This document shows, one piece after another, positions 5,555 to 43,493 of a stretch of 43,493 bases of DNA (position 1 is its first letter; each line of letters starts with the position of its first letter). The stretch lies in NCBI GenBank assembly GCA_021325095.1, contig JAJPHV010000009.1:1-43493 (forward strand), read 5' to 3'. The stretch is from Chloroflexota bacterium (GTDB taxonomy: Bacteria; Chloroflexota; Anaerolineae; Aggregatilineales; UBA2796). The notes under the pieces are model-generated. The model was given only the letters and a program-made list of their open reading frames with translations, did no database searches and was not told the origin of the DNA. Both the position numbers and the translations under genes were made by a program.

Positions 5555-5607
5555 TGATCAATCCCTTTGTGGGCCTGGCAGGTTCAGATGGCACAGCGGC
5601 GCATTTG

Positions 5608-6969
5608 CTAACGCCCCATCAGCGTTTTCACCAGATAGGCCAGCGATACCATATTCAGCACTGCCAGTACGATAACGGTCAGGACGAGCCGGGCACTACC
5701 GCCACCGCCCTGGCTCCTTCGTTTGGCGGGCTGAATCTCCGGGGGAATGGCCTTAAAGTAGACTTGCATCCCCGATGCACCCGAGCCGGAGAACGCAAAC
5801 CCGCCCGATGCGGGGCCTGGCGCGCCGAAATCATCGTCCAGGGCAGGTGGCGCACTCCCAAATACACTGGGCTGAGACGGGCCAAACGGGTTGCTGCTGG
5901 CAGGCACAGGTGGCGGCGCAGCGGACGTCCTGGTCTTGGCAGTGCCTGGCCCTGGCACGCTGCTGAACAAGTCAGCCACCGGATCCTTGTCGAAGGTATC
6001 GGCGGCGGGCGCAGCGGCTTTGGCTGCCGGTGCAGGTTTGTCGAACGGGTCAGGCGCCGCAAACGGATCGGAGCGGCCCGGCGTGCCGAAAGCACTGCTG
6101 CCACCAAAGGGGTCGACGCTGCCAGCGTTGAACAAGTCGTCGGAGCCACCAAAAGGATCGCTGCCGAAGGAGGGCGTGCCGGGGGCGTCAAAGTCTCCGA
6201 AAGGACTGGACGACCTGGTGGCTGGCGCGCCAAAAGGATCGACGGCCCCCTGCTCAACGCCGAAGGGGTCTTGAACGGCGCTGCTGGTGCTGCTGCCACC
6301 AAAGGGGTCGGCGCTGTCGTCGAAGGAAGATGCGAACGGCCCGCTGGATGGATCAAAGCTCGAATCGAAGCCACTTCCGAAACTCGCATCGCCGGCTGCA
6401 CTGTTCCCACCCAGTTGCAGGCCAGACACCCAGTTGTCGTATTCCTCGGAGCTTGGCAGTTGGACTTCTTTCCCACTGCCGTATACGGCAGGGCCGCTGC
6501 CCCGGTTCCAATCCACGCTGGTGGCGGGGGCTGTGGAAGCGCTGTCAGCAGTGTCGAACCCTCCCCACCCGGAGCCAAGCACCGGGTCTGCACCGCTGCC
6601 ATAAGGGTTGCTGTCGAAGCCCGTTCCAGCGAACGGGTTGCTGTCGAAACCGCTGTCAAATGGACTGGCGGCTGCCGAAGTGGGCGTCGGAGCTGGTGCG
6701 GCGGGTTTGGGTTTCTGCCCGGACGCCTTCTTGAGTGCCTCCAAACCCCTTTGCGCCTTCTGGTTAGAAGGATTGATCGACAGCACATTTTCCAGGCAAA
6801 GCTGCTGTTCGTCCGGCGTATCGACCACAGCACTCAGCCAGAGCCACGCCGTTTCATTGCGCTCGTCCAGGTCAACCGCCTTCATAAGCGCCCGACGTGC
6901 ATCGTCTTTGCGGCCCGCCTTGATGGCCGAGATGCCTTCCTGGATAATCGCCTCTACGTTGGGTGCCAT
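5608..6969 (-). CDS. TPR protein with disordered DPF-repeat linker and C-terminal membrane anchor
   Basis: 453 residues. Residues 1-85 form two to three TPR-like helical repeats (IKAGRKDDARRALMKAVDLD; AWLWLSAVVDTPDEQQLCLE). Residues 95-410 are a low-complexity linker of Ser, Gly, Asp, Pro, Phe and Ala containing seven DPF motifs, five of them DPFG. A hydrophobic helix close to the C-terminus (RLVLTVIVLAVLNMVSLAYL) would anchor it with a tail of only a few residues, leaving the TPR in the cytoplasm. The ATG at 6969 is preceded by AAAGGGA at good spacing; an in-frame ATG 16 codons upstream lacks this. It lies 51 bases downstream of the MFS gene on the same strand and may be co-transcribed. Function unknown; the TPR suggests a scaffold. 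Confidence 0.75.
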   Translation of the reverse strand: MAPNVEAIIQEGISAIKAGRKDDARRALMKAVDLDERNETAWLWLSAVVDTPDEQQLCLENVLSINPSNQKAQRGLEALKKASGQKPKPAAPAPTPTSAAASPFDSGFDSNPFAGTGFDSNPYGSGADPVLGSGWGGFDTADSASTAPATSVDWNRGSGPAVYGSGKEVQLPSSEEYDNWVSGLQLGGNSAAGDASFGSGFDSSFDPSSGPFASSFDDSADPFGGSSTSSAVQDPFGVEQGAVDPFGAPATRSSSPFGDFDAPGTPSFGSDPFGGSDDLFNAGSVDPFGGSSAFGTPGRSDPFAAPDPFDKPAPAAKAAAPAADTFDKDPVADLFSSVPGPGTAKTRTSAAPPPVPASSNPFGPSQPSVFGSAPPALDDDFGAPGPASGGFAFSGSGASGMQVYFKAIPPEIQPAKRRSQGGGGSARLVLTVIVLAVLNMVSLAYLVKTLMGR

Positions 6970-20033: not shown

Positions 20034-22247
20034 ATGGCGACACTGAATCCGAACCTGATCTCGGCGGATATGACGGCGGCGCTCAACAGCGCTGTGGACA
20101 TCGTCAAATCTTATAACAAGCGGGTGATCTATCCGGAAGCCGTCTTGCTGGCCCTGGTGCGGGGCAAGGACACCGCCGCGCGCCGAATTCTGAACTATTA
20201 CCAGGAGCAGCGCGGGCTGGACGTGGATCGGCTGGAGCGCTCGGTGCGGATGGCCGTCGAAACCCGGCGCGACGTGGACGGCGATCTGCAATTCCTGGCT
20301 GCCAACGGCGAGAAATGGCCGCTCAGTCGCCAGATGATCATCGGGCTGGACGAAGCCCTGAGCATCGCGCAGGCCGGCAACGAAGTCTACATAGATACCG
20401 ACCACATGCTGGCCGTCATGACCGAGAGCAAACTGAGCACGGGTGGCCTGCTGCGCCAGTTCGGGCTGACGCCCAACGCCATGACCGACCTGATGGCCGA
20501 CAAGTTGGTCGCCAAGCAGTCCACGACAGCCAACGACATGGTTGCCAGCGCCAAAAAGGGCAGCGTGCGGGCCGTCTATTTCCGTGACGACCTGCTGCGC
20601 CAATTGACCAACATGCTCTCGCAGCGCGTCAATCGCCACGTGATCCTGATCGGGCCGGACGGGGTGGGCAAGCGCACGCTGGCCTACAGCCTGGGCCTGT
20701 TGATGGCGGAGGGCAAAGGCCCCACCGGGCTGAACAAGCTCGTCACGGTTGAAGAGGGCGCGCTGCTGGATAACCCGGTGCAGGCGGTGATCAGTGGGCT
20801 GAACCAGGCCCAGGGCGGCATCCTGTTCATCCCGCACATCGAGCGTTTTTTCGGCGGGCCGATCAAAGCCGAGTTCCCGAAGGCTGCGCCCACCGTCCAG
20901 AAAGCGCTCTTGGGCGATTCGCCCGTCATCATGGGGACGGCGACCCAGGCCGATTATGATGACCGGGTCGCCAGTACCAGCGGCGTGGCCGACCACGTGC
21001 AGATTCTGCGCGTGCCCGAACCCAACGACGCCGAGGCCACCGAGATCATGAAGGTGCTGGCTCCGCACATCGCGGCGGACTACAAGGTAACGGTGACGGA
21101 CGACGCCATCAAGACGGCGGTGCAGCTTGCGCGGCGCTACATGAGTCCGGGCGTGCCGCTGCCACGCAGCGCCGAACACCTGATGCACCGCGCAGCAGCG
21201 ATGGTCAACGTCAGCCAGCAGGGGTCGGGCACGGGCGACGCCAAACTGGATGCAGAAGACGTGACGCTGGCGGCGGCGCAGATCACCGGTATCCCGGTGT
21301 CCAAGTTGGGCCAGGACGAACGCACCCGCTACGCCAGCATGGTCGAGCACATCCACGAGCGGATCGTCGGGCAGGACGAAGCGGTGCTGGCCGTTAGCCG
21401 CGCCGTTAAAACGGCACGTGTCGGGTTAAAAGACCCCAAACGGCCCATCGGCAGCTTCCTGTTCCTGGGGCCGACGGGCGTCGGCAAGACCGAACTGGCG
21501 AAGGCGCTGGCCGAGTTTCTGTTTGGCAGCGAGGATGCGCTGCTCGAAATCGACATGAGCGAGTACATGGACGACGGCAGCGTGAACAAGCTGATCGGCG
21601 CGCCACCCGGCTACGTGGGTTACGAGGGCGGCGGCCAGTTGACGGATCGCGTCCGGCAGCAGCCGTACATCGTCGTGCTCTTTGACGAGGTGGAGAAAGC
21701 CCACCAGCGCATCATGGACATTTTGCTGCAAGTCCTGGAAGCCGGGCGTCTGACTGACGGGCAGGGCCGCGTCGCGCAGTTCAGCGAGAGCGTGATCATC
21801 CTGACCAGCAACCTCGGCTCGGCCTACTTGCAGGATACGACCATCACCGACCAGGATCGGGAGGGCGTGATGGACGAAGTGCGCAACTTCTTCCGGCCCG
21901 AATTCCTGAATCGCCTGGACGAGATCGTGATCTTCCACCCGCTCGGCGAGCCAGAGCTACGTAATATCCTGGACATGATGTTGAAAAAGGAAGCCAAGCT
22001 CGCCGAAGATCGCGGCCTGAAGCTGGAATTCACCCAGGCCGCCAAGGACTGGATGATGGCCCAAAACGACCACCCGGAATGGGGGGCGCGTCCTCTGCGC
22101 CGCATTATCGGGCGTGCCGTGCGGGAGCCGCTGGCCGATTACCTGCTGACGGCCAACCCGCCCCCAGGCACGACAGTGCGCATCGACGGCACGAACACTG
22201 CCAACGCACTCACATTCTCTACGGTGGAGTCGCAGCCTACGTCGTAG
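20034..22247 (+). CDS. ClpB/ClpA-like AAA+ chaperone with degenerate first ATPase domain
   Basis: 737 residues. An N-terminal Clp_N-like repeat domain (1-165) leads to a first AAA+ domain (about 185-400). In it the Walker A is GPDGVGKRT, with Arg in place of the catalytic-site Ser/Thr, and the Walker B reads ILFIPHIERF without the Asp-Glu pair, so it is probably inactive. The second AAA+ domain (about 430-660) is intact: GPTGVGKTE, VVLFDEVEKAH, the pore motif GAPPGYVGYEGGG, the sensor TSNLGS and the Arg finger in RPEFLNRLDEIV. The D2-small domain ends the protein. There is no ClpB M-domain coiled coil between D1 and D2 and no IGF-type ClpP loop, so it is neither a standard ClpB nor ClpA/ClpC. 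It probably remodels protein substrates with one active ring. GGCAAGAGG precedes the ATG. Confidence 0.88.
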   Translation: MATLNPNLISADMTAALNSAVDIVKSYNKRVIYPEAVLLALVRGKDTAARRILNYYQEQRGLDVDRLERSVRMAVETRRDVDGDLQFLAANGEKWPLSRQMIIGLDEALSIAQAGNEVYIDTDHMLAVMTESKLSTGGLLRQFGLTPNAMTDLMADKLVAKQSTTANDMVASAKKGSVRAVYFRDDLLRQLTNMLSQRVNRHVILIGPDGVGKRTLAYSLGLLMAEGKGPTGLNKLVTVEEGALLDNPVQAVISGLNQAQGGILFIPHIERFFGGPIKAEFPKAAPTVQKALLGDSPVIMGTATQADYDDRVASTSGVADHVQILRVPEPNDAEATEIMKVLAPHIAADYKVTVTDDAIKTAVQLARRYMSPGVPLPRSAEHLMHRAAAMVNVSQQGSGTGDAKLDAEDVTLAAAQITGIPVSKLGQDERTRYASMVEHIHERIVGQDEAVLAVSRAVKTARVGLKDPKRPIGSFLFLGPTGVGKTELAKALAEFLFGSEDALLEIDMSEYMDDGSVNKLIGAPPGYVGYEGGGQLTDRVRQQPYIVVLFDEVEKAHQRIMDILLQVLEAGRLTDGQGRVAQFSESVIILTSNLGSAYLQDTTITDQDREGVMDEVRNFFRPEFLNRLDEIVIFHPLGEPELRNILDMMLKKEAKLAEDRGLKLEFTQAAKDWMMAQNDHPEWGARPLRRIIGRAVREPLADYLLTANPPPGTTVRIDGTNTANALTFSTVESQPTS

Positions 22248-31035: not shown

Positions 31036-31967
31036 TGCTGTGTTGCAAACATAGGTAGCGAACGAGAGACGGTCAGACATGGATGTCATAGACCAGGGCC
31101 TGGATAATCGGCTGGCGGTTTTGCAGGCTGCGCCGACGGGAGCGAATAGCGTCGCCGAACTTGCGTTTGATGACCGAGTTGACGGTTTCGGTTTTCCAGC
31201 GCTGCCCCTGCACGCCATCCAGGGGCGCTGCCGAGACCCAATCCGCGCCGGGCATTGCGCGCTGGGGCAATCAGATTACCGCCGCGTCGGATGGGCGGGA
31301 TCACATCGCCAGCCTGAAGCGTTTGGCCGTCGAAGCCCGCAGCGGCCAGCATCACCCAGGCTCGGCGTTTGCCAACGTACCGCCCATGGCGCCGGGCATC
31401 ACGGCGCAGGCCACTCAAGAAGGACGCATCGTTGCCCGGCCCACGTCCCGTCCGCCAGGCCAGGATGAATTGCGTCTGTGTACCCACTGCAGACGCCCCT
31501 TTGAGGAAGTCTCGGAAGCGCCGTCCGCTCCGGGTCTGGTAGTAGGCGCTGGCCTGCGACGGCGAAAAGCCCGTCGAGTCCGAGGCAATGACCGCTTCTG
31601 CGACGGCCAACTCACGCCGCAAGGTGTCCTTCAGCGTCTCGAAGTCAATCATCCCCAACTTCTTGTCCGTGCGCGACAGCGTGCTGTGGTCGGGCACGCG
31701 CGGCCAGTCCAGTACTTGGCACACCGCCTCGCTCGCCAACAGGAATTCTTCCATATCCCGATAGCTCACGTCCAGATAAAACGTCATCAGCACACACGCC
31801 GCCAACTGCGGCAGCGTGAAGGGATGCGGACTCTTTGGGGGCGAGTAGCGCGGCAAGGCCTGTTGGGTCAAGCCATTGGCGATCCGCGCCACCTTGACGT
31901 ATCGGCTTTCTCGTTTCTTGCTCATGCCTGTCATCTATCATGCTTTTCCCATCTTTGCAACACCGCA
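31036..31967 (-). mobile_element. 932-bp IS5/IS4-like insertion sequence with 17-bp terminal inverted repeats
   Basis: The ends are TGCTGTGTTGCAAACAT (31036-31052) and, inverted, TGCGGTGTTGCAAAGAT (31967-31951), matching at 15 of 17 positions. Between them lies one frameshifted DDE transposase gene on the minus strand. I could not see a clear target-site duplication outside the repeats. The element sits between the ADP-ribosylglycohydrolase-like gene and the helicase operon. Confidence 0.8.
31073..31934 (-). pseudogene. DDE transposase of the insertion sequence, frameshifted
   Basis: The N-terminal two thirds run in one frame from ATG 31934. They include an IS5-type helical region (TLPQLAACVLMTFYLDVSYR; DHSTLSRTDKKLG), the first catalytic Asp in AVIASDSTGFS and a second in AAAGFDGQTL. 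Around 31240-31270 the frame changes. The expected C-terminal part with catalytic Glu, GQRWKTETVNSVIKRKFGD, is read in another frame and ends at 31073. In the original frame the protein runs on as Arg-rich nonsense to about 31086. The full product would have about 287 residues. One shift most likely inactivates it; no slippery heptamer typical of programmed frameshifting was seen. Confidence 0.82.
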
Positions 31968-32217: not shown

Positions 32218-35200
32218 GTGGACATTTTCGAACTAAGGAATCAGCTTATAAGAGATTACGCTGAGTATGCAAGCAGCTTTGTCCACATCCGGGATTCTCG
32301 AATTTATGAGACTGTACAGGAAAGCCTATCAGAAGGAGTTTTTTGGCCCGATCCCCTGATCCAACTGAATCCCACGTTCGAGCGTGGAGGAAGCATTGAT
32401 GATCTGGTCAGGCAGCAGATTCTACACCCCGAGTGCAGCCGTGTCTTCAGGCGCGGGAAAGACCGAGGTGAAGACAGCCCACTCAATCTTCATCGCCACC
32501 AGACCGACGCCATTCTTACGGCGCGAGACGGGCACAATTACATCTTGACAACTGGAACCGGGTCGGGCAAGAGCCTCGCCTATATCGTGCCCATCGTCGA
32601 TCATGTGCTGCGCAGAGGAACCGGCCACGGTATTCAGGCGATTATCGTCTATCCCATGAATGCACTTGCGAATAGCCAGGCTGGAGAGCTACGCAAGTTC
32701 CTACAGGATGGCTATCCAGACGGGAAAGGCCCGGTCAGCTTTGCGCGTTATACCGGACAAGAAAGCGATGAAGAACGTCAGCGGATTATTGCCCATCCAC
32801 CAGACATTTTGCTCACAAATTATGTCATGTTGGAACTGCTAATGACACGCCCGCGAGAGCGGAAATTAATCGAGGGCGCGCGCGGGCTGCGTTTCTTGGT
32901 GTTGGATGAATTGCATACTTATCGAGGACGGCAAGGGGCAGATGTCGCGCTGCTTGTGCGTCGAGTACGCAATCGTCTCGAATCGGGACGGCCCATTCAG
33001 TTTATTGGCACATCGGCAACGCTTGCAAGTGAAGGGACTTACGACGAACAGCGCCTAAAAGTTGCTAAGGTTGGGTCAGAGTTGTTCGGCGTGCCCGTTT
33101 ACCCAGATCACATTATCGGTGAAACCTTGCGTCGTGCTACACCAGAGCGGGATTTGGATAAGCCGGCTTTCCGAAGTGAACTGAGAGAAGTGCTGATGCA
33201 GGGTGAGCGTTTGGTTGCACCGTCTCAGTATCAGGAATTTGTTGAGCATCCTTTATCTTGCTGGATCGAGAGCACCTTTGGTGTGCAGATGCGTGAAGGC
33301 AGGTTAGTACGCAGTACACCGAGCAGCATTCAAGGGAAAGAGGGGGCCGCGCGACGGTTGCATGACCTGACGGGTGTAGATGAAGAGTCCTGTGTCCAGA
33401 TTATTCAACGCTGGCTGCTCGCAGGCTATGAATGCGAACCGAACCCTGAAACTGGATTTCACCCTTTCGCGTTTCGCCTGCACCAATTTATCAGCCCTGG
33501 CGACACAGTTTATGCGACGATTGAACCGGAAGCAGAGCGATACCTGACCCTCAATGGTCAGCAGTTTGTGCCCGGTGATCGAGAGCGTGTGCTGTTTCCC
33601 CTCTGTTTCTGCCGGGAATGCGGGCAGGAATACTATGTCGTTCGCGTTACGACAGGCAGCGATGAGCAACATAAAGTGATGCCGCGCGAATTCCGCGATC
33701 AGCTTGCAGACGATGACACAGAGGCTGGCTATTTATATCTTAGCACCGATAAACCCTGGCCCACAGAGTTCGACGACCTGGTAAAAAAGCTGCCAGACGA
33801 TTGGCTCGAAGAACGCAATGGTGTTCAGCGTGTCAAGTCAAATCGACGTGAGAAACTGCCTCGTGTCGTGCGTGTCCTCGCTAACGGTAACGAGGATGGG
33901 GACGGTCAGATTTGCGCGTATATTCCAGCCCCTTTCCTGTTCTGCGTCAATTGTGGAGTATCTTATGCGCCACGCCAAAACGATTTCGGCAAATTAGCAT
34001 CGCTCAGTTCGGAGGGACGCAGCAGCGCGACCACTATTTTGAGCTTATCCGCAATACGCTCACTGCGCATCAGTGATCTGAAGCCCGAAGCACGCAAGCT
34101 CCTGAGTTTCACCGATAACCGTCAAGATGCTTCTTTGCAGGCGGGACACTTCAACGATTTTGTCGAGTTGGGGTTGTTGCGAGGAGCAATTTATCGGGCG
34201 GTAAGCGATGCGGGAGCCGAAGGCTTGCGCCATGATGCCATTGCCCAGAAGGTCTTTGACACGCTTAATCTCCCACTGCACCTGTATGCAAGCGATCCAT
34301 CTGTACGCTTTCAGGCGCTTCAAGAGACTCAGAAAGCGCTGCGACAGGTTCTCGGTTACCGGATTTATCGAGATTTGCGGCGTGGGTGGCGCATCACTTC
34401 GCCTAATCTGGAGCAGTGTGGATTACTCGAAATTGATTACGACTCGCTGGATGACGTATGTGCGGCTGACGATGTATGGGCAAATTGTCATCCAGCCCTG
34501 GCTCATGCCAGCCCGCAAACACGCAGGCGCATCAGCAGGGTGCTGTTGGACTATCTCCGCCGGGAACTGGCTATCAAAGTGGATTATCTGGATGCGGGTT
34601 ATCAGGAACGCATCCAGCAACAGAGTAGTCAACGTTTGGTCGAACCCTGGGCCATTGACGAAGATGAGCGAATGGAACATGCGACGGTGGTCTTTCCACG
34701 TCCGCGTGGCGACGATGATTATTTAGGCAATCGTTATGTATCGGCACGCGGCGGCTTCGGTCTCTATCTGCGGCGTCCTGGGACATTTCCAGAATTCAAC
34801 CGCCGTACCCATGATTCCATTGATCTGGTTGCGACCGACCTCCTGATTCGTCAACTGCTTGAGGGGCTGCGAGTCGCTGGGCTGGTCGAGATTGTCGTTG
34901 AACCGAAGGACACAACGGACGTGCCCGGTTATCAATTGGTCGCCTCCGCCATGCGTTGGTGTCCGGGGAATGGTGAACGCGGCTTCCATGACCCTATTCG
35001 CGTGCCCAACGAGCCAGAAAGTGGAACCCGTCCGAATCGTTTCTTCGCCGATTTTTACCGTTCGGTCGCTGAGTCCTTGATCGGCCTGGAAGCCCGCGAA
35101 CATACCGCCCAGGTGCCGAATGAGGATCGCATCAAACGTGAGGTGGAATTCCGCGAAGGTCGTCTGCCTATCCTCTACTGTTCACCGACGATGGAACTGG

Positions 35201-37383
35201 GTGTCGATATTGCAGAACTAAACGTCGTCAATTTGCGCAATGTGCCACCCACACCGGCTAACTATGCGCAACGCTCAGGTCGCGCAGGACGAAGCGGGCA
35301 ACCCGCCCTGGTTTTTACCTACTGTTCCAGCGGCAGTCCGCACGACCAGTATTTTTTCCGCCGTCCAGATCGAATGGTCGCTGGCGCAGTTGCACCGCCG
35401 CGCTTAGATTTGACGAACGCGGACCTGCTGCGCGCCCATATCCACGCTATCTGGTTAGCAGAAACGGGGATGTCGCTCGGTGATTCATTGCGGGACATCC
35501 TTGATTTAGCCGGCGATCCGCCATCGCTCGAGTTGCTCCCCGAATGTCGTGAACAGGCCGAATCACTGAGCGCGCGCAGCGCAGCGCGGCAGCGTGCCGC
35601 CGATATATTGGCGACTATTCCCGACCTGGCTAATGCCGATGCGCTCCTTGACGCAACAATGAGTTCGGTGGTTCAGGCTTTCGATTCCACCTGTGACCGC
35701 TGGCGCAACCTCTACTGGGCCGCGTTGCGGCAGGCTGATGTCCAAAACAAGATTATCCGAGACGCCTCACGCAGCGCCAGCGACAAACAGCAGGCAGTGC
35801 GACTGCGCCGTGAAGCTGAAGCACAGCTGAAGTTGCTCACCGAGATTGACAGCCTGGCCCAGTCGGATTTCTACAGCTATCGCTACTTCGCCACCGAAGG
35901 TTTTTTGCCAGGCTATAGCTTTCCAAGACTGCCCATTTCGGCGTTCATTCCTGCCCGGCGCACCCGTCAACGGGACGAGTTTCTGTCACGTCCACGTTTT
36001 CTGGCAATCTCCGAATTTGGCCCGCGTGCCATCATCTACCATGAAGGTTCACGTTACCTCATTAACCAGATTATTATGCCAGTGTCGGTGAGCGAAGACG
36101 ATGAACCGCTAACCACACAAGTCAAGCAGTGTAGCAACTGCGGTTATCTGCACCCATTGCGTCCAGGTGTAAATTTCGATTTGTGCGAACGCTGTGGGAT
36201 GCCACTCGACCTGGCACTTTCGCCGCTGCTTCGTTTGCAGAATGTGGTCACTCGCCGCCGTGACCGCATTAACTCTGACGAAGAAGAGCGATTGCGGCTG
36301 GGCTACGAAATTCGCACGGGTGTGCGTTTCGCGCAGAAAGATGGACGCGCTGCGGCAACCACAGCCCGTGTAGTCGGTGAAGAAGGGGAATTGGTTCGCC
36401 TGACCTATTCCTCGTCGGCAACCTTATGGCGTATTAACCTCGGTTGGGCGCGACGCAAAAACAAATATCAGTATGGCTTTGTTCTCGATATTGAGCGTGG
36501 CTACTGGGCACGAAATGACCAGGTTGAAGATGATCCAACCGATCCCATGTCGGAGCGCACCCGGCGCGTGATTCCTTATGTGGAGGATAGTCGGAACTGT
36601 CTCCTGTTTGAGCCGCGCATTCCGCTTGAACTAGAGGATTTAGCTTCCCTACAAGCGGCCTTAAAGCGTGCGATAGAGGCACACTATCAGTTGGAAGACA
36701 ACGAACTGGCCGCCGAACCACTGCCCGATAGCTCAGAACGTCGGCTCATCCTCTTCTACGAGTCAGCAGAAGGCGGCGCAGGGGTTTTACGACGATTGGT
36801 GGATGAACCCGGGGCGCTCGTGGAGATTGCGCGTGCAGCATTGGACTTGTGTCACTTCGATCCTGATACAGGAGAAGACCTCCATCGAGCGAAACGCGCC
36901 CAGGAGGACTGTGAAGCTGCGTGCTATGACTGTTTGCTCAGTTATGGTAATCAGCGCGAGCATCCACTGCTGGATCGGCAGCGCATTCGAGACCTGCTGC
37001 TGGCGCTGACAAAATCACGGGTCGAAACCAGCCCGACCACAGAAACACGCGCGACCCATCTGGAAACATTGCTGCGGTTGTGCGACTCCGACCTGGAACG
37101 CAAATGGCTATCGTATCTCGATGAACGTGGTTATCGTCTGCCCGACGATGCACAAACCTTATTCGATGAATGTTCGGCAAGGGTAGATTTTCTTTACCGC
37201 AATCAGTATACCGTGATCCTGATCGACGGTTCACCGCATGATTATCCTCATCGCCAACAACTCGATGCGCGACAGACTGAGTGTTTGGAAGATGCAGGAT
37301 TCATCGTCATTCGCTTTGGATACCGTGATGATTGGGAAACTATCATCAAGCAAAATCCCCACATTTTTGGAGAAGGTCTATGA
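32218..37383 (+). CDS. DEAD/DEAH-type helicase with DUF1998-like domain and Vsr/DUF559-like C-terminus
   Basis: 1721 residues. Superfamily 2 helicase motifs: Walker A TGTGSGKS at 112-119, DELH at 230-233, SAT at 266-268, and the C-terminal pair ELGVDIAELNVVN and QRSGRAGRSG. The segment LSFTDNRQDASLQAGHFND is typical of MrfA/DUF1998 helicases. Zinc-type Cys clusters lie near 465 (CRECG), 575 (CVNCG) and 1305-1330 (CSNCG, CERCG). The DUF1998-like part (about 1510-1590) has YESAEGGAGVL and CEAACYDCLLSYG. The last 73 residues resemble a Vsr/DUF559 nuclease: Asp1657 (RVDFLY), Asp1670 (LIDG), His1674, Asp1683 and Arg1685, but Leu replaces the usual Glu two residues before Asp1670. GTG 32218 has AGGAG 11 bases upstream; in-frame starts from 32092 lack one. 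First gene of a probable defence operon; it overlaps the next by ATGA. Confidence 0.88.
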   Translation: MDIFELRNQLIRDYAEYASSFVHIRDSRIYETVQESLSEGVFWPDPLIQLNPTFERGGSIDDLVRQQILHPECSRVFRRGKDRGEDSPLNLHRHQTDAILTARDGHNYILTTGTGSGKSLAYIVPIVDHVLRRGTGHGIQAIIVYPMNALANSQAGELRKFLQDGYPDGKGPVSFARYTGQESDEERQRIIAHPPDILLTNYVMLELLMTRPRERKLIEGARGLRFLVLDELHTYRGRQGADVALLVRRVRNRLESGRPIQFIGTSATLASEGTYDEQRLKVAKVGSELFGVPVYPDHIIGETLRRATPERDLDKPAFRSELREVLMQGERLVAPSQYQEFVEHPLSCWIESTFGVQMREGRLVRSTPSSIQGKEGAARRLHDLTGVDEESCVQIIQRWLLAGYECEPNPETGFHPFAFRLHQFISPGDTVYATIEPEAERYLTLNGQQFVPGDRERVLFPLCFCRECGQEYYVVRVTTGSDEQHKVMPREFRDQLADDDTEAGYLYLSTDKPWPTEFDDLVKKLPDDWLEERNGVQRVKSNRREKLPRVVRVLANGNEDGDGQICAYIPAPFLFCVNCGVSYAPRQNDFGKLASLSSEGRSSATTILSLSAIRSLRISDLKPEARKLLSFTDNRQDASLQAGHFNDFVELGLLRGAIYRAVSDAGAEGLRHDAIAQKVFDTLNLPLHLYASDPSVRFQALQETQKALRQVLGYRIYRDLRRGWRITSPNLEQCGLLEIDYDSLDDVCAADDVWANCHPALAHASPQTRRRISRVLLDYLRRELAIKVDYLDAGYQERIQQQSSQRLVEPWAIDEDERMEHATVVFPRPRGDDDYLGNRYVSARGGFGLYLRRPGTFPEFNRRTHDSIDLVATDLLIRQLLEGLRVAGLVEIVVEPKDTTDVPGYQLVASAMRWCPGNGERGFHDPIRVPNEPESGTRPNRFFADFYRSVAESLIGLEAREHTAQVPNEDRIKREVEFREGRLPILYCSPTMELGVDIAELNVVNLRNVPPTPANYAQRSGRAGRSGQPALVFTYCSSGSPHDQYFFRRPDRMVAGAVAPPRLDLTNADLLRAHIHAIWLAETGMSLGDSLRDILDLAGDPPSLELLPECREQAESLSARSAARQRAADILATIPDLANADALLDATMSSVVQAFDSTCDRWRNLYWAALRQADVQNKIIRDASRSASDKQQAVRLRREAEAQLKLLTEIDSLAQSDFYSYRYFATEGFLPGYSFPRLPISAFIPARRTRQRDEFLSRPRFLAISEFGPRAIIYHEGSRYLINQIIMPVSVSEDDEPLTTQVKQCSNCGYLHPLRPGVNFDLCERCGMPLDLALSPLLRLQNVVTRRRDRINSDEEERLRLGYEIRTGVRFAQKDGRAAATTARVVGEEGELVRLTYSSSATLWRINLGWARRKNKYQYGFVLDIERGYWARNDQVEDDPTDPMSERTRRVIPYVEDSRNCLLFEPRIPLELEDLASLQAALKRAIEAHYQLEDNELAAEPLPDSSERRLILFYESAEGGAGVLRRLVDEPGALVEIARAALDLCHFDPDTGEDLHRAKRAQEDCEAACYDCLLSYGNQREHPLLDRQRIRDLLLALTKSRVETSPTTETRATHLETLLRLCDSDLERKWLSYLDERGYRLPDDAQTLFDECSARVDFLYRNQYTVILIDGSPHDYPHRQQLDARQTECLEDAGFIVIRFGYRDDWETIIKQNPHIFGEGL

Positions 37384-40226
37384 ATCATGCGGCAGGCACT
37401 CTTGTTCGTGTCCGAGGGCGAGAGTGGGTCGTTCTACCAGGCTCTACCGAAAGCCTGGTATTGCTCCGTCCTCTAGGTGGTACAGACGATGAGCAAATCG
37501 GTATTCATACAGCGCTAGACGCGGTTGAACCGGCCACTTTTGAACTACCTCGTCCTGAACAGGTCGGTGATTATCGATCCGCAAAATTGCTGCGCGATGC
37601 AGTTCGGTTGGGATTCAGGTCTAGCGCAGGCCCATTCCGTTCGTTTGCTCGAATAGCTGTTGAACCAAGACCCTATCAGCTTGTTCCTCTGCTGATGGCG
37701 CTCAAACTCAATCCTGTCCGTGTCCTGATTGCCGACGACGTTGGAATCGGCAAAACCATCGAGGCTTGCCTGATCGCTCGTGAGTTGCTAGATCGCGGCG
37801 AAATCGAGCGGATGGCGGTACTTTGCCCGCCGCAATTAGCGGAGCAGTGGCAGGCCGAGCTGCGTGAGAAGTTCTTCATAGAAGCTGAACTTGTACTTCC
37901 CGGAACCGTTGCACGCCTGGAACGAAAAAAGCGTATTCGCATGGGCGAGTCGCTATTTGAGCACTACCCTTATGTAGTCGTATCCACTGACTTCATAAAA
38001 TCTGACCGCCGCCGCGAGGAGTTTTTACGGACCGCGCCCGAATTTATCATCGTGGATGAAGCGCACACTGTCGTTAATGCCACTGAACACCGGGGAAATA
38101 GACATCAGCGTTTCCAACTGGTCTCCGGTTTGGCGAAGGATCCTTCGCGCCATCTTGTCTTCGTGACGGCTACGCCACACAGCGGAAATGAATCGGCGTT
38201 TCGATCCCTGCTTGAGCTTTTGAAGCCAGAGTTTGGCGACTTACCAGAGGACTTGAGTGGACGCGAGAACGAGGCTATTCGCCGTGAACTGGCACAGCAT
38301 CTTGTCCAACGCAGACGCGCCGATATACGCTCCTACCTGGAATCGACAACCCCGTTCCCTGAACGCCAATATACCGAAACAACCTACCGCTTATCTGAAG
38401 AATATAAGCAACTGTTTGGGCGCGTCCTTCGTTATGCACGGGAGACCATCTCCACGCCCGCAGAAGGCTATCGCCAGCGCGTGCGTTGGTGGTCTGTCCT
38501 GGCGCTTTTGAGTGCGCTCGCTTCAAGCCCGGCGGCTGCTGTAGAAACCCTGCGCAATCGAGCCGCAACAACCGACGCCCGGAACATTGATGAGGTCGAT
38601 GAAATTGGCCGTCAAACTGTTCTTGACTTAATGGACACCGAATCTGCTGAAGGCATCGACATTGTACCGGGGTCTGACATTGGGGAATTGGCGGAAGACG
38701 AAGTAAACAATCGGCGGCGGTTGCTCGACATGGCGCGCGAAGCGGCTGCCTTGATGGGCAAGAAAGACCGAAAGTTACAGCAGAGCGTAGGGATCGTCAA
38801 ATCGCTTCTGGATGAAGGCTATAGCCCCATCGTCTTCTGTCGTTTTATCCCCACCGTGGACTACGTGACTGCTGAACTCAGGCGCAACTTGCCCAACGTT
38901 GAGGTCATCGGCGTCACCGGGTTGCTGCCCTCGGCAGAGCGAGAACAGCGGGTTTCGCAGCTTGCCAGGTCGTCGCAGCGGGTTCTGGTCTGCACCGATT
39001 GCCTGAGTGAAGGCATAAACCTGCAAAAAGACTTCAATGCCGTCCTCCACTATGATTTGTCCTGGAATCCTACACGCCATGAACAACGCGAAGGGCGCAT
39101 TGATCGCTATGGGCAGCCACGTCCGACAGTCAAGGTCGTGACCTATTATGGCATTGATAATCAGATTGACGGCGTGATTCTCGACGTTTTGCTGCGAAAG
39201 CACAAGGCGATCCGCGACTCGTTGGGCATCTCCGTACCGCTCCCCGGCGACATCTCGCAGATAGTCGAGGCCATTTTTGAGGGGCTTCTCCTGCGAGACC
39301 GATCCCACCAGTCAGCAGAACAGCTTCTATTACTACCAGAGGATGTCATGCGGCCGGAAAGGACTGCTCTGAGCCTGCAATGGGAGAGTGTCAAGGAACG
39401 TGAAAAGCGCTCCCGAACCATGTTTGCCCAGCAGACTATCCGTGTGGATGAGGTTAAAGCGGAACTGGAAGCGGCGCAAAAAGCAGTCGGCTCTGGAACA
39501 GACGTGGCTGAGTTTATGATGGATGCGGTGCGGATGTACGGTGGTTTTGTTTCCGTAAATGGTGCGGTGGAATTTGACCTCACCGAGACGCCGCGCGGGT
39601 TGCGCGAAGCGATGGGCAGCCAGGTCAGGTTCGCGGCACGCTTTGATCAGATACCCGTGAAAGGCGATCAACTCTATCTGACCCGTACCCATCCTATCGT
39701 TGAAGGATTAGCCGCCTATGTGATGGATACCGCGCTTGATCCCGAAACCGATGAAGAGGAGGCGCGAGCCAGGCGGAGCGGCGCAATCCGCACCGTCCAC
39801 GTGGAAACGCGGACGACGCTGCTGTTGCTGCGTTTTCGATACCACCTTCTGACACAGCGCGGAGACCGCGAGCAGCAATTACTGTGTGAGGACAGTCTGG
39901 TTCTGGCCTTTGAGGGGTCACCGGAAAATGCTCGATGGCTGGACAATGAAACAGCGGAAAAGCTCCTGGCTATCAAACTCAGTCAGCAAGATGAGAACAT
40001 CGCTCGTGCCCAGGCCGAAATCTTCGTGCGCAGAGTCATCGATGGGTTTGACCACATCGCTCCCCACTTGAACGAGATTGCCCAGTTTCACGGAGATAGA
40101 TTGCTGGAAGCCCACCGCCGTGTGCGTGCTGCGGCCCGAATGACGGGTATTCGATACGAGATCGTGCCGCAACTTCCGCCCGATGTGCTGGGCATCTATG
40201 TTTATCTTCCGGCGAAGGGGAAATAA
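37380..40226 (+). CDS. SNF2-family helicase, DISARM DrmD-like
   Basis: 948 residues. It is a Swi2/Snf2 translocase with motif I DDVGIGKTIEA (119-129), DEAH at 226-229, TATPH at 263-267, motif V CTDCLSEGINLQ (538-549) and motif VI HEQREGRIDRYGQ (567-579). The overall form resembles RapA/HepA and DISARM DrmD, with a short N-terminal beta region before motif I (LVRVRGREWVVLP). The long C-terminal part (about 650-948) is mixed, with few recognisable motifs. Such proteins move along duplex DNA without unwinding it and in DISARM act with a methylase. ATG 37380 overlaps the previous stop (ATGA), indicating translational coupling. The methylase begins 2 bases after its stop. The DrmD assignment rests on family feel and gene context. 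Confidence 0.87.
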   Translation: MNHAAGTLVRVRGREWVVLPGSTESLVLLRPLGGTDDEQIGIHTALDAVEPATFELPRPEQVGDYRSAKLLRDAVRLGFRSSAGPFRSFARIAVEPRPYQLVPLLMALKLNPVRVLIADDVGIGKTIEACLIARELLDRGEIERMAVLCPPQLAEQWQAELREKFFIEAELVLPGTVARLERKKRIRMGESLFEHYPYVVVSTDFIKSDRRREEFLRTAPEFIIVDEAHTVVNATEHRGNRHQRFQLVSGLAKDPSRHLVFVTATPHSGNESAFRSLLELLKPEFGDLPEDLSGRENEAIRRELAQHLVQRRRADIRSYLESTTPFPERQYTETTYRLSEEYKQLFGRVLRYARETISTPAEGYRQRVRWWSVLALLSALASSPAAAVETLRNRAATTDARNIDEVDEIGRQTVLDLMDTESAEGIDIVPGSDIGELAEDEVNNRRRLLDMAREAAALMGKKDRKLQQSVGIVKSLLDEGYSPIVFCRFIPTVDYVTAELRRNLPNVEVIGVTGLLPSAEREQRVSQLARSSQRVLVCTDCLSEGINLQKDFNAVLHYDLSWNPTRHEQREGRIDRYGQPRPTVKVVTYYGIDNQIDGVILDVLLRKHKAIRDSLGISVPLPGDISQIVEAIFEGLLLRDRSHQSAEQLLLLPEDVMRPERTALSLQWESVKEREKRSRTMFAQQTIRVDEVKAELEAAQKAVGSGTDVAEFMMDAVRMYGGFVSVNGAVEFDLTETPRGLREAMGSQVRFAARFDQIPVKGDQLYLTRTHPIVEGLAAYVMDTALDPETDEEEARARRSGAIRTVHVETRTTLLLLRFRYHLLTQRGDREQQLLCEDSLVLAFEGSPENARWLDNETAEKLLAIKLSQQDENIARAQAEIFVRRVIDGFDHIAPHLNEIAQFHGDRLLEAHRRVRAAARMTGIRYEIVPQLPPDVLGIYVYLPAKGK

Positions 40227-40228
40227 GC

Positions 40229-43200
40229 ATGGCAGTCAGAATGCTTGATGAGTTCACCACCGTTCGCACTGAAGGATTGCTGCTGCCACCGGAACTCCTG
40301 CAACGGATTGTTGATCCCGACTCCGGGCTGGACGGACGAACGCCCAGCGATTACCACCTCTCCGGTGAACGCATTAACGAGGCCATCAGCAATGCCTGGA
40401 ATCGGGCAAGAGCAGCCTGGCGGAACTTCAAGGCTGCTCAGGCCATGCTGCCAGAGAGCGATGCGGGCACAACCATCACCCGCGAACGGTGGCTGCTGCC
40501 CCTATTCACCGCATTGGATTATGGGCGGCTGCAAACGGCGACTGCGGTCACCATTGACGGACGGGCCTACCCGATCTCGCACCGGTGGGGAGATTTGCCC
40601 ATCCACCTGGTCAGCTTCCGTATTGACCTGGACAGGCGAGCGCCCGGCGTCTCCGGCGCAGCCGCGAGCAGTCCCCACGGCCTCATGCAGAGTTTTCTGA
40701 ACCACAGCCCGGAACATACCTGGGGCTTCGTTTCAAACGGCTACCGACTGCGGGTGCTACGCGATAACAGCAGCCTGACCCGCCAGGCATACCTCGAATT
40801 CAACCTTGAAGGGATGATGGAGGGGGAGGTCTATCCCGACTTTGTGTTGTTCTGGATGGTTTGCCATCAGTCGCGCGTGGAGGGGAACCGGGCCGACGAC
40901 TACTGGCTGGAAAAATGGGCGCGAACCGCCGACGAACAGGGCAAACGCGCCCTCGACCAACTGCGCGACAGCGTGGAAGCGGCGATTCGGGCGCTCGGCA
41001 CTGGCTTTATCAAACATCCCAGAAACCGGGAACTGCGCGAAAAACTGCGTTCGGGTGCGCTTGACAGGCAGGACTACTACCGGCAGCTTCTCCGGCTGGT
41101 GTACCGGCTGCTGTTCCTGTTTGCCGCCGAAGATCGGGAACTGCTGCTTGACCCGGAAGCCGACGATAACGCCCAGGAACTTTATTTGAAGCATTATTCC
41201 GTTCGCCGCGTGCGAGAAGTCGCAGAGCATTTTCGAGGGACGACCCACTCTGACCAGTTCGAGGGGCTGCGGCTCGTGATGCGGCTGGTCGGCGGATACG
41301 ACAACGGGAAGGCCAAAATACTGGGGTTGCCTGTCCTGGGCAGCGCCTTGTTCGATGATAAGTTCGTTCAGGACATCATCGACTGCAAGATCGCCAACCG
41401 CGATCTGCTGGAAGCCATTCGCGCCCTCGCCTTCATCCAGGATAGGGAAACGGGCACGCTTCGCCCCATTGACTACAAGCACCTGGGGCCGGAGGAACTC
41501 GGCGGGGTTTACGAATCGCTGTTGGAACTCCACCCGGAAGTGAACCTGGCGGCACAGCGCTTCGAGCTTGAGACCGCTGGCGGCCATGATCGCAAGACGA
41601 CGGGTTCCTACTTCACCCCGCCTGCGTTGATCAACGCGCTGCTGGATTCGGCGTTAATGCCTGTTCTCAATGAAGCCCGCCAGTCCCGCGACCCGGAATC
41701 GGCTATTCTGGCCCTCAAAATCTGTGACCCTGCCTGCGGCAGCGGCTCGTTCCTGATCGCGGCGGCCCACCGTATTGCTCATGCATTGGCGCAAGTGCGG
41801 GCGGGTGGCGATGAACCGCCGCCCTCACTGGTGCGCACGGCGCTGCGCCAGGTGATCGGGAACTGCATTTACGGGGTGGACATCAACCCGATGTCGGTGG
41901 AACTGTGCAAAGTCAACCTGTGGATCGAGGCGCTTGACCCCGGCAAGCCGCTGTCGTTCCTCGACCACCATATCAAGGTCGGCAACAGCCTGCTGGGAAC
42001 CACCCCGGCGCTGATGGCGAAAGGCATCCCCGACGGCGCATTCGAGCCATTGGAGGGCGATGATAGGGCACTGACCGCGAAACTTCGCAAGCAAAACCGG
42101 AGCGAACGCAAGACATTGGAAAGCGGCCAGCTGACCATGTTCGACCTGTTTGATCTGTCCGCGAACCAGGCAGCCCTGACCAGAGCCGTGAGCGAGGTCG
42201 ATGAGATCGAAGACATTCGTATCGCCGGGATACGCGCCAAAGAAGCCCAGTGGCAGGCGCTGGCGAACGACCCGGAATACATCCGCGCCCACCTGCTGGC
42301 GGATGCGTGGTGTGCAGCGTTTGTGTGGGAACGCAGACCGGATACCGGTGTGCCGCCGCTGACCCAGTTTGTGTACCAGCGCCTGTGCCAAGACCCCTTT
42401 GCGTCCGAATTTGAACCGATCCGCCGCATCGTGGTGCAGTTGCGGGAACAGTACGGCTTCTTTCACTGGCACATCGAGTTTCCAGGCGTGTTTGAAGTGC
42501 CAGCGGAACTGGACAGCGCCGAAAACGAACAATGTGGCTGGAATGGCGGCTTTGATTGTGTGCTGGGTAATCCGCCCTGGGAACAAATTCAGCTTGATGA
42601 TCGGGAGTTCTTCGCGGAACGTGCGCCAGAAATCGCCCAAGCCTTGAACATGTCTGAACGCAAGAAAATGTTGAATCAATTTGCGAAGGCCGATCCTTAC
42701 GCCTACTCACTTTATGTCCAGGCCGTGCGAGCCAATGACGGCATCAAGCATTTTTGTCATGCAAGTGGACGCTATCCCTTAACCAGTTTCGGGCGCTTGA
42801 ATACTGCACCGCTGTTCTGTGAAGCAGGATTGAGCATTATCAACCGTGAAGGCTACTCAGCCTTGATTGTGCCAACAGGCATCGCTACCGATTCGTTTAA
42901 TCAATATTTTTTTAACCATATTGTGGACACGGGCGCGTTGAGTAGTCTTTACGACTTCGAGAACCGCGATGCCATTTTCCCTGGTGTACACCGCAGTTAT
43001 AAATTCTGCCTGCTGACCATAGCAGGCAGCGCCGCGCCCGCCCAACGAGGAGCAACCTTCGTCTTCTTCGCCCAGAATGTGGGCGATCTGGACGATCCCG
43101 AAAAGCGTTTCACCCTCTCGGCGGAGGATATTCGGCTGCTCAATCCAAACACGCGAACAACGCCGATATTTCGTTCAAAGCGTGATGCCGACCTCACCAA

Positions 43201-43493
43201 GAGTATTTATCGGCGCATCCCGATTTTAATCCGTGAAGGTGAACCAGAAGAAAATCCCTGGGGAATCAAATTTCAACTGATGTTCATGATGAACACCGAC
43301 AGCGATAAGTTCCGTACCCGCGAGCAGTTGGAACGGCGGGGGTTCCACCTCGTCGGGAATCGTTTCGTCGCTGATGATCCCGCCGATAAGCGCGTTTATC
43401 TGCCGCTGTATGAAGCCAAGATGATCCACCAGTTTGACCACCGCTGGGCCACCTACGACGGCCTGGAAACCCGCGATCTGACCCTGGCCGAGA
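40229..43493 (+). CDS. Eco57I/DrmMI-type N6-adenine DNA methylase (3' end outside window)
   Basis: The frame is open for 1088 codons to the window edge. The N-terminal 450 residues are a helical and mixed region with RTPSDYHLSGERINEAISNA and a Leu-rich helix (LLRLVYRLLFLFAAEDRELL), as in large type IIG/Eco57I-like and PglX/DrmMI enzymes. Methylase motifs follow: YFTPP at 461-465, motif I DPACGSGSF at 500-508, then GVDINPMSVELCKVNLWIEAL and VGNSLLG, and catalytic motif IV NPPW at 781-784 (VLGNPPWEQI). The target-recognition region continues past the end. It would methylate adenine N6, protecting host DNA. No PD-(D/E)XK restriction motif is seen in the visible part. ATG 40229 lies 2 bases after the SNF2 stop, so it is the third gene of the operon. 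Confidence 0.9.
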   Translation, partial: MAVRMLDEFTTVRTEGLLLPPELLQRIVDPDSGLDGRTPSDYHLSGERINEAISNAWNRARAAWRNFKAAQAMLPESDAGTTITRERWLLPLFTALDYGRLQTATAVTIDGRAYPISHRWGDLPIHLVSFRIDLDRRAPGVSGAAASSPHGLMQSFLNHSPEHTWGFVSNGYRLRVLRDNSSLTRQAYLEFNLEGMMEGEVYPDFVLFWMVCHQSRVEGNRADDYWLEKWARTADEQGKRALDQLRDSVEAAIRALGTGFIKHPRNRELREKLRSGALDRQDYYRQLLRLVYRLLFLFAAEDRELLLDPEADDNAQELYLKHYSVRRVREVAEHFRGTTHSDQFEGLRLVMRLVGGYDNGKAKILGLPVLGSALFDDKFVQDIIDCKIANRDLLEAIRALAFIQDRETGTLRPIDYKHLGPEELGGVYESLLELHPEVNLAAQRFELETAGGHDRKTTGSYFTPPALINALLDSALMPVLNEARQSRDPESAILALKICDPACGSGSFLIAAAHRIAHALAQVRAGGDEPPPSLVRTALRQVIGNCIYGVDINPMSVELCKVNLWIEALDPGKPLSFLDHHIKVGNSLLGTTPALMAKGIPDGAFEPLEGDDRALTAKLRKQNRSERKTLESGQLTMFDLFDLSANQAALTRAVSEVDEIEDIRIAGIRAKEAQWQALANDPEYIRAHLLADAWCAAFVWERRPDTGVPPLTQFVYQRLCQDPFASEFEPIRRIVVQLREQYGFFHWHIEFPGVFEVPAELDSAENEQCGWNGGFDCVLGNPPWEQIQLDDREFFAERAPEIAQALNMSERKKMLNQFAKADPYAYSLYVQAVRANDGIKHFCHASGRYPLTSFGRLNTAPLFCEAGLSIINREGYSALIVPTGIATDSFNQYFFNHIVDTGALSSLYDFENRDAIFPGVHRSYKFCLLTIAGSAAPAQRGATFVFFAQNVGDLDDPEKRFTLSAEDIRLLNPNTRTTPIFRSKRDADLTKSIYRRIPILIREGEPEENPWGIKFQLMFMMNTDSDKFRTREQLERRGFHLVGNRFVADDPADKRVYLPLYEAKMIHQFDHRWATYDGLETRDLTLAE

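What the first reader, a model, noticed from the sequence alone, without database searches (positions are those of the whole stretch)
32218..43493. Three-gene helicase / SNF2 / adenine methylase operon resembling a DISARM-Druantia hybrid defence system
Seen: three genes with 4-base overlap and 2-base spacing encode a 1721-residue DUF1998-type helicase, a DrmD-like SNF2 helicase and a DrmMI-like Eco57I methylase. Known: DISARM class 1 has drmD, drmMI, drmA, drmB and drmC, with DUF1998 in a separate small DrmB; Druantia uses one large DUF1998 helicase (DruE). Inference: here a single very long helicase seems to stand in for DrmA plus DrmB, or a DruE-like protein has joined a DISARM methylase and SNF2 pair. 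The operon's start lies next to an IS, as expected of a mobile defence island.
Basis: partly seen in the sequence, partly recalled or inferred. Interest (0 to 1): 0.88.

Follow-up and report, generated by a model that had tools for sequence, protein, structure and literature searches.

The report
ARMADA phage-defence operon with swappable recogniser
These three genes match a recently described bacterial virus-defence system (ARMADA Type I) rather than a new hybrid; one protein likely marks the cell's own DNA so that two helicases and a fused nuclease would destroy unmarked phage DNA, and a second copy of the start of its predicted target-reading part elsewhere in the genome suggests that the target may be switchable.

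Summary
Window 32218-43493 holds three tightly packed open genes: a 1721-aa YprA-family helicase with a fused DUF1998 module and a C-terminal Vsr-like nuclease, a BrxHII/DrmD-like SNF2 helicase, and a PglX/DrmMI-like adenine methylase cut by the contig end. It is not an ad hoc DISARM-Druantia hybrid: content, order and domains match ARMADA Type I (Bell et al., bioRxiv September 2025, PMC12458937). Of 55 fetched loci with at least 6.5 kb after the helicase, 54 carry all three genes, across many phyla.

What goes beyond the parts of that paper I saw concerns the methylase, ArmB. The contig stops where ArmB's methylase part meets its predicted target-recognition domain (TRD); the same 107 bases recur, inverted, on contig C101, beside the last ArmB codons and a helicase gene that follows armB in relatives. 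A separate 275-aa TRD protein fits that copy. In another genome of the order ArmB ends at this boundary and TRD genes or pieces lie on six other contigs; simple repeats concentrate in TRDs. I infer exchangeable, partly phase-variable specificity (about 0.45), as known for PglX and hsdS. Inversion itself was not observed.

The parts
31036..31967 (-). IS remnant just upstream of the operon (transposase-like ORF 31086-31934, inverted ends)
   Evidence: 12 further partial matches in the genome; inverted ends 34 nt, 74% complementary; no Pfam hit for the ORF
32218..37383 (+). armC: YprA-family DEAD/DEAH helicase, 1721 aa, with fused DUF1998 module and Vsr-like nuclease
   Evidence: Pfam DEAD, Helicase_C, MZB, DUF559; best PADLOC hits DruE; start by homologues
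32494..33030 (+). armC RecA1/DEAD domain (Walker A GTGSGKS, DELH box)
   Evidence: Pfam PF00270; K118, D230, E231 and H233 kept in 34 of 34 aligned proteins
35080..35298 (+). armC RecA2 / Helicase_C
   Evidence: Pfam PF00271
36649..36936 (+). armC MZB (DUF1998) zinc-binding domain; C1565, C1569 and C1572 invariant
37081..37365 (+). armC C-terminal Vsr-like nuclease domain (E1627, D1657, D1670)
37380..40226 (+). armA: BrxHII/DrmD/RapA-like SNF2 helicase, 948 aa
   Evidence: PADLOC model PDLC02853 (labelled DpdE) 5e-248 over almost the full length; NCBIfam DrmD 2.8e-89, below its cut-off
40229..43493 (+). armB: PglX/DrmMI-like N6-adenine methylase, cut by the contig end at residue 1088
   Evidence: Pfam Eco57I and N6_Mtase; NPPW and SAM-site sequence present in the translation
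43387..43493 (+). 107-bp boundary between the ArmB methylase part and its predicted target-recognition domain; repeated exactly, inverted, at G000:C101:1-107

Best explanation
The three genes have the content, order and domains of an ARMADA Type I operon (armC-armA-armB), which likely protects the cell by methylating its own DNA with ArmB while the ArmA and ArmC helicases and ArmC's fused Vsr-like nuclease are predicted to engage and cut unmethylated phage DNA. Shown here: gene identity, order, conservation of the trio, conserved helicase, methylase and nuclease residues, and a Vsr-like fold in the ArmC model. Inferred from Bell et al. (a Type II system works without killing the cell and needs all its genes and the methylase NPPW motif) and from BREX/DISARM: that ArmB sets self versus non-self, that ArmA translocates on DNA and that ArmC unwinds and cuts. 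Also inferred: ArmB's target is set by a C-terminal TRD that can be exchanged at a fixed boundary.
For: PADLOC, Pfam and NCBIfam hits for all three proteins. Order helicase, SNF2, methylase with the nuclease on the helicase matches the published Type I description. 66 of 68 loci with at least 1 kb after the helicase carry the SNF2 gene, and 54 of 55 with at least 6.5 kb carry both partners; 52 of 69 SNF2 genes start within -120 to +60 bp of the helicase end. Catalytic residues: Walker A K and DExH in 34 of 34; nuclease E 33, D 32, D 32 of 34. ArmC C-terminal model (mean pLDDT 84.3) matches MrfA, DrmB and Vsr. The E. coli ATCC 8739 ARMADA II proteins are detectable homologues: ArmC 26%, ArmA 27%, ArmB 28% over parts.
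Confidence: 0.87

Rival explanations
1. A new DISARM-Druantia hybrid system peculiar to this lineage.
For: DruE models are the best PADLOC hits of the helicase, and DrmD and DrmMI models hit the other two proteins.
Against: The same trio in the same order occurs in record titles from many phyla, and it was named and partly tested in 2025.
Confidence: 0.04
2. An ordinary DISARM class 1 locus whose drmA, drmB and drmC lie beyond the contig end.
For: DrmD-like and DrmMI-like genes are present; the sequence after 43493 is missing; drmA-drmB lies beside the trio in one plasmid.
Against: The counterpart of DrmA plus DrmB is already present in one chain with its own nuclease; no second full YprA-like ORF lies near the trio in the 88 sequences scanned.
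Confidence: 0.03
3. The repeat of the ArmB boundary on C101 is a remnant or a second strain's allele in a mixed metagenome bin, with no switching function.
For: The bin has 6.37% contamination; a further ArmB-tail remnant lies on C51 with 32 identical bases after it; no locus with TRDs on opposite strands among the 76 sequences with a TRD hit; MAG assemblies break at any repeat.
Against: The copy begins at the exact domain boundary; C101 also carries the end of ArmB and the NERD helicase gene that directly follows armB in L024; a full TRD protein matching the C101 copy is recorded on a contig of the same length as that of ArmC.
Confidence: 0.5

Closest known systems
ARMADA Type I (Bell et al. 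2025, PMC12458937)
   Same: YprA-like helicase first, then BrxHII-like SNF2 helicase, then PglX-like methylase; Vsr-type nuclease fused to the helicase
   Different: In relatives examined here: a NERD-UvrD helicase gene after armB in Chloroflexota, ArmD homologues in five loci and one partial match, TRD copies, split ArmB and repeats at the TRD boundary; I saw none of these in the parts of the paper I read (supplements not seen)
ARMADA Type II (E. coli ATCC 8739 / NCTC 12900)
   Same: Homologous ArmA, ArmB, ArmC
   Different: Order ArmA-ArmB-ArmC-ArmD with a RelE-UvrD ArmD; here armC is first
DISARM class 1
   Same: DrmD-like SNF2 helicase and DrmMI-like methylase
   Different: DrmA and DrmB are separate genes there; here one chain, with a fused nuclease and no PLD-type DrmC seen
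Druantia Type III (DruH-DruE)
   Same: Large single YprA-family helicase with fused C-terminal nuclease
   Different: DruE carries PLD domains and pairs with DruH (passages); here Vsr-like and paired with SNF2 and methylase
BREX/Pgl PglX phase variation and hsdS TRD shuffling
   Same: Methylase specificity or activity switched through a G-tract (pglX, passages) or TRD exchange (hsdS, listings)
   Different: Here in an ARMADA methylase, with the switch site at the methylase/TRD boundary and TRDs as separate genes in one genome; switching not observed directly

Membership tests
[quoted passage not shown]
   conserved in 54 of 55 loci with enough sequence
ARMADA Type I | YprA-like gene first in the usual order | tested here: met
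   order as described
ARMADA Type I | Predicted active Vsr-type nuclease at the helicase C-terminus | tested here: met
ARMADA Type I | OB-CON-DUF1998 module in the same chain as the helicase | tested here: met
ARMADA Type I | BrxA-like helical insertion after RecA1 | tested here: inconclusive
ARMADA Type I | Extra CxxC zinc-binding motifs in the inserted domains | tested here: met
   C465, C468, C576, C579, C1305, C1308, C1323 and C1326 in 34 of 34; zinc binding itself not tested
ARMADA Type I | Helicase falls in the Type I clade of the YprA tree | tested here: inconclusive
   quick tree of 28 rows, careful search unfinished, published Type I reference not available
ARMADA Type I | Anti-phage activity | not testable with these tools
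   needs phage assays
ARMADA Type II | Gene order ArmA-ArmB-ArmC-ArmD | tested here: not met
   armC is first in the window
DISARM class 1 | Separate drmA and drmB genes | tested here: not met
   both counterparts lie in one chain; the contig end hides what follows
DISARM class 1 | PLD nuclease DrmC | tested here: inconclusive
   sequence after 43493 missing
Druantia Type III | DruE paired with DruH | tested here: not met
   the genes directly after the helicase are SNF2 and methylase; DruH was not searched for elsewhere in the genome
Dpd | 7-deazaguanine biosynthesis and insertion genes alongside DpdE-like helicase | tested here: inconclusive
   none seen among 20 upstream ORFs; downstream unseen; the DpdE label comes from one PADLOC model

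The most novel reading that the evidence does not exclude
ARMADA's methylase is a modular, switchable recogniser: ArmB is divided at a fixed boundary motif (LPLYEAKM) into a constant methylase part and interchangeable target-recognition domains, which are exchanged by recombination at inverted boundary repeats (this genome), encoded as free-standing specificity subunits scattered over the genome (G537), or switched on and off by simple repeats at or in the TRD, so a population would carry several self marks against phages.
Probability: 0.45. Interest if true: 0.68.

Novelty: new member of a known kind. Interest (0 to 1): 0.45.

Why it matters
It places a large, widespread operon family (7629 helicase relatives scored) under one recently named system, so the locus need not be chased as a new hybrid. 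It also shows that PADLOC 2023 labels ArmA as DpdE or DrmD and ArmB as DrmMI, so annotations will misname these loci. If the TRD reading is right, ARMADA would be a defence system whose self-mark can change within a clone, which bears on phage escape and on horizontal transfer, and is directly testable by long-read and methylome sequencing.

Tried and rejected
Considered and rejected: lineage-specific DISARM-Druantia hybrid; plain DISARM class 1; Dpd on the strength of the DpdE model (no other Dpd gene seen).

Limits of the repeat statistics: 5 of the 8 simple-repeat tracts in TRDs come from one genome, G537; duplicates of two contigs were not removed there. The 90 boundaries include some contig stretches held twice, and only 3 of the 90 have a homopolymer of 8 or more.

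Full report
What is there. Three genes run in one direction with a 4-base overlap and a 2-base gap: armC 32218-37383 (1721 aa), armA 37380-40226 (948 aa) and armB from 40229 to the contig end at 43493 (1088 aa read, cut). The window is the whole of contig C62 of its genome. The 20 upstream ORFs scanned are metabolic, housekeeping or unknown, with a D12-class methylase at 1-738, and an IS remnant lies between them and armC.

Families. ArmC hits DruE models best in PADLOC, in parts (7.6e-103), with weaker DrmA hits; Pfam gives DEAD, Helicase_C, MZB and DUF559. ArmA matches one PADLOC model over almost its whole length at 5.4e-248; that model is labelled DpdE, while DrmD models follow at 5e-81 and NCBIfam DrmD at 2.8e-89, below its cut-off. 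ArmB hits DrmMI and type IIG models and Eco57I and N6_Mtase. Relatives of the helicase are very many: 7629 of 7995 scored candidates, only the best 120 listed.

Conservation. Of these 80, 68 hold at least 1 kb after the helicase and 66 of them carry the SNF2 gene (misses L068, L107); 55 hold at least 6.5 kb and 54 carry both partners (miss L064). In L052 the helicase is divergent from the other two. Among 61 genomes of the window's relatives, 8 including the window's own have a full-length helicase match. 218 plasmid records match, 70 over at least 80% of the query, including Deinococcus radiodurans MP1, where armB is annotated in two pieces and its end lies beyond an IS630 element, and a Nocardioides plasmid with drmA-drmB just upstream.

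What it is. Bell et al. (PMC12458937; I saw the abstract, Results parts 1 and 2 of 3, the conclusions, the figure legends and found passages) define ARMADA Type I as a YprA-like gene first, then BrxHII-like and PglX-like genes, with a predicted active Vsr-type nuclease fused to the helicase. Every one of these features was tested here and met. They report that a Type II system protected against 13 of 80 phages, that each of its four genes was needed, and that mutants of the helicase Walker motifs of ArmA and ArmC and of the ArmB NPPW motif lost protection, without cell death. E. coli ATCC 8739 has that system at NC_010468 4239557-4255798; its ArmC, ArmA and ArmB match the window proteins at 26-28% over parts.

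Mechanism, inferred. ArmB would methylate adenines in a target sequence set by its C-terminal TRD, marking self. Unmarked phage DNA would be engaged by ArmA and ArmC; ArmC would unwind it and the Vsr-like domain cut it. None of this is shown for this operon.

The boundary in ArmB. The contig ends because its last 107 bases (43387-43493) occur again: C101 positions 1-107 are their exact reverse complement, identity stopping at the left edge. The repeat starts just before the conserved motif LPLYEAKM, the start of the predicted TRD: 34 of 66 ArmB ORFs scoring over 400 matched a regular expression for it beyond residue 700, many of the others being cut. On C101, positions 174-230 of the other strand read RWLMPLPADPSVAHPPRD and a stop, the end of ArmB as in L025 and L024, followed by HicAB, VapBC and a NERD-UvrD helicase gene. 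A homologue of that helicase begins directly after the armB stop in L024, same family, at 73% over the stretch held, and was found in 6 of 21 further stretches of the order, on the strand of the TRD in five and opposite in one (L166). So C101 is probably the far flank of the same gene, with the boundary inverted there. That is the layout of an invertible segment, but the segment itself is not in the assembly.

A full second TRD. A search for short relatives of a free-standing TRD listed P0165, 275 aa, whose start PSGKRVYLPLYEAKM matches the C101 copy (38 of 39 residues) and not the window copy before the boundary; the database gives its contig as 36,154 bases, the same length as for the window's ArmC. 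Equal length suggests, but does not prove, the same contig.

Free-standing TRDs. In G537, same order, the operon is complete except that ArmB stops at the boundary (...LEGNHFVRRADEAGD, stop), with small reverse ORFs after it. A TRD model matches eight places on six other contigs beside unrelated genes; some are pieces. L033 and L066, same genus, also have an ArmB stop at the boundary, an insert of about 310 bp with a similar small reverse ORF, then a TRD ORF; in L033 with its own start, in L066 broken into two ORFs. 1530 short proteins (0.55-1.75 times 291 aa) match a free-standing TRD; of the 120 listed, 42 are on contigs of 10 kb or more by my count, though some may be cut ArmB ends.

Simple repeats. 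Eight tracts lie in 105,297 bp of TRD sequence against two in 1,038,183 bp of the other parts (YprA, SNF2, ArmB N-part) by the same rule; five of the eight are from G537. Homopolymers of 8 or more lie just before the boundary in 3 of 90 places against 3 of 3545 windows of the ArmB N-part: L155 G18, L071 G10, L065 G8. In L065 the methylase and TRD frames differ across the tract.

Accessory genes. ArmD (RelE-UvrD) homologues, 31-37% identical over nearly the whole of E. coli ArmD, lie between armC and armA in L038, L049, L061 and L085 and after armB in L090; L030 has a partial match. The parts of Bell et al. that I saw name ArmD only for Type II. Actinomycete loci carry an AAA_5 ATPase after armB (8 loci in one cluster).

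Prior art for the switch. [quoted passage not shown] Domain movement and phase variation in type I specificity subunits are in print (listing). Inversion of BREX pglX is recalled, not read. For ARMADA, the main text of Bell et al. has no occurrence of 'inversion' or 'phase vari', and searches for ARMADA returned only two other relevant papers (passages); supplements were not available.

Verdict. A new member of a known kind, with a testable and possibly new layer of specificity switching that this window only touches at its last 107 bases.

Noticed in passing
window:43387-43493 and G000:C101:1-107 (L003): Exact inverted repeat at the ArmB methylase/TRD boundary; C101 continues with the end of ArmB, HicAB, VapBC, a NERD-UvrD helicase gene and an IS630-like transposase.
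   Followed up: partly
L154-L159 and L174 (genome G537): An ARMADA operon whose ArmB lacks its TRD, and TRD genes or pieces on six other contigs, several with long simple repeats (G18, AAGCC x24, AGCCC x17, AGCA x11, TGGGC x7).
   Followed up: partly
L038:6928-8973, L049:7613-9694, L061:15520-17547, L085:15538-17595, L090:22128-24218: ArmD-like RelE-UvrD proteins inside or beside Type I-ordered loci.
   Followed up: partly
L024, L165, L166, L169, L171, L172, L173, L003: A NERD-UvrD helicase gene near armB in Chloroflexota, directly after it in L024; PADLOC matches the C101 copy to RTasNERD-Hel.
   Followed up: partly
L066 about 21087-21368 and L033 about 21144-21410: A conserved insert of about 310 bp with a small reverse ORF (predicted membrane segment by eye) between the ArmB stop and the TRD ORF; several copies in L174.
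   Followed up: no
L140 (G000:C51) about 5561-5900: A stray ArmB tail fragment, followed by a 32-base stretch shared with C101, away from any ARMADA gene seen.
   Followed up: no
window:37380-40226: PADLOC model PDLC02853, labelled DpdE, fits ArmA over its whole length and probably represents ARMADA ArmA rather than Dpd.
   Followed up: no
L117 (Nocardioides sp. JS614 plasmid): Annotated drmA-drmB just upstream of an ARMADA Type I-like trio, with a McrB/McrC-like pair after it.
   Followed up: no
L116 (Deinococcus radiodurans MP1), L118 (D. radiophilus): armB is interrupted near its end by IS elements (IS630, IS982), with a HicA gene downstream in both.
   Followed up: partly
L176-L184 (IMG/VR): Nine viral contigs carry relatives of the helicase; their context was not examined.
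   Followed up: no
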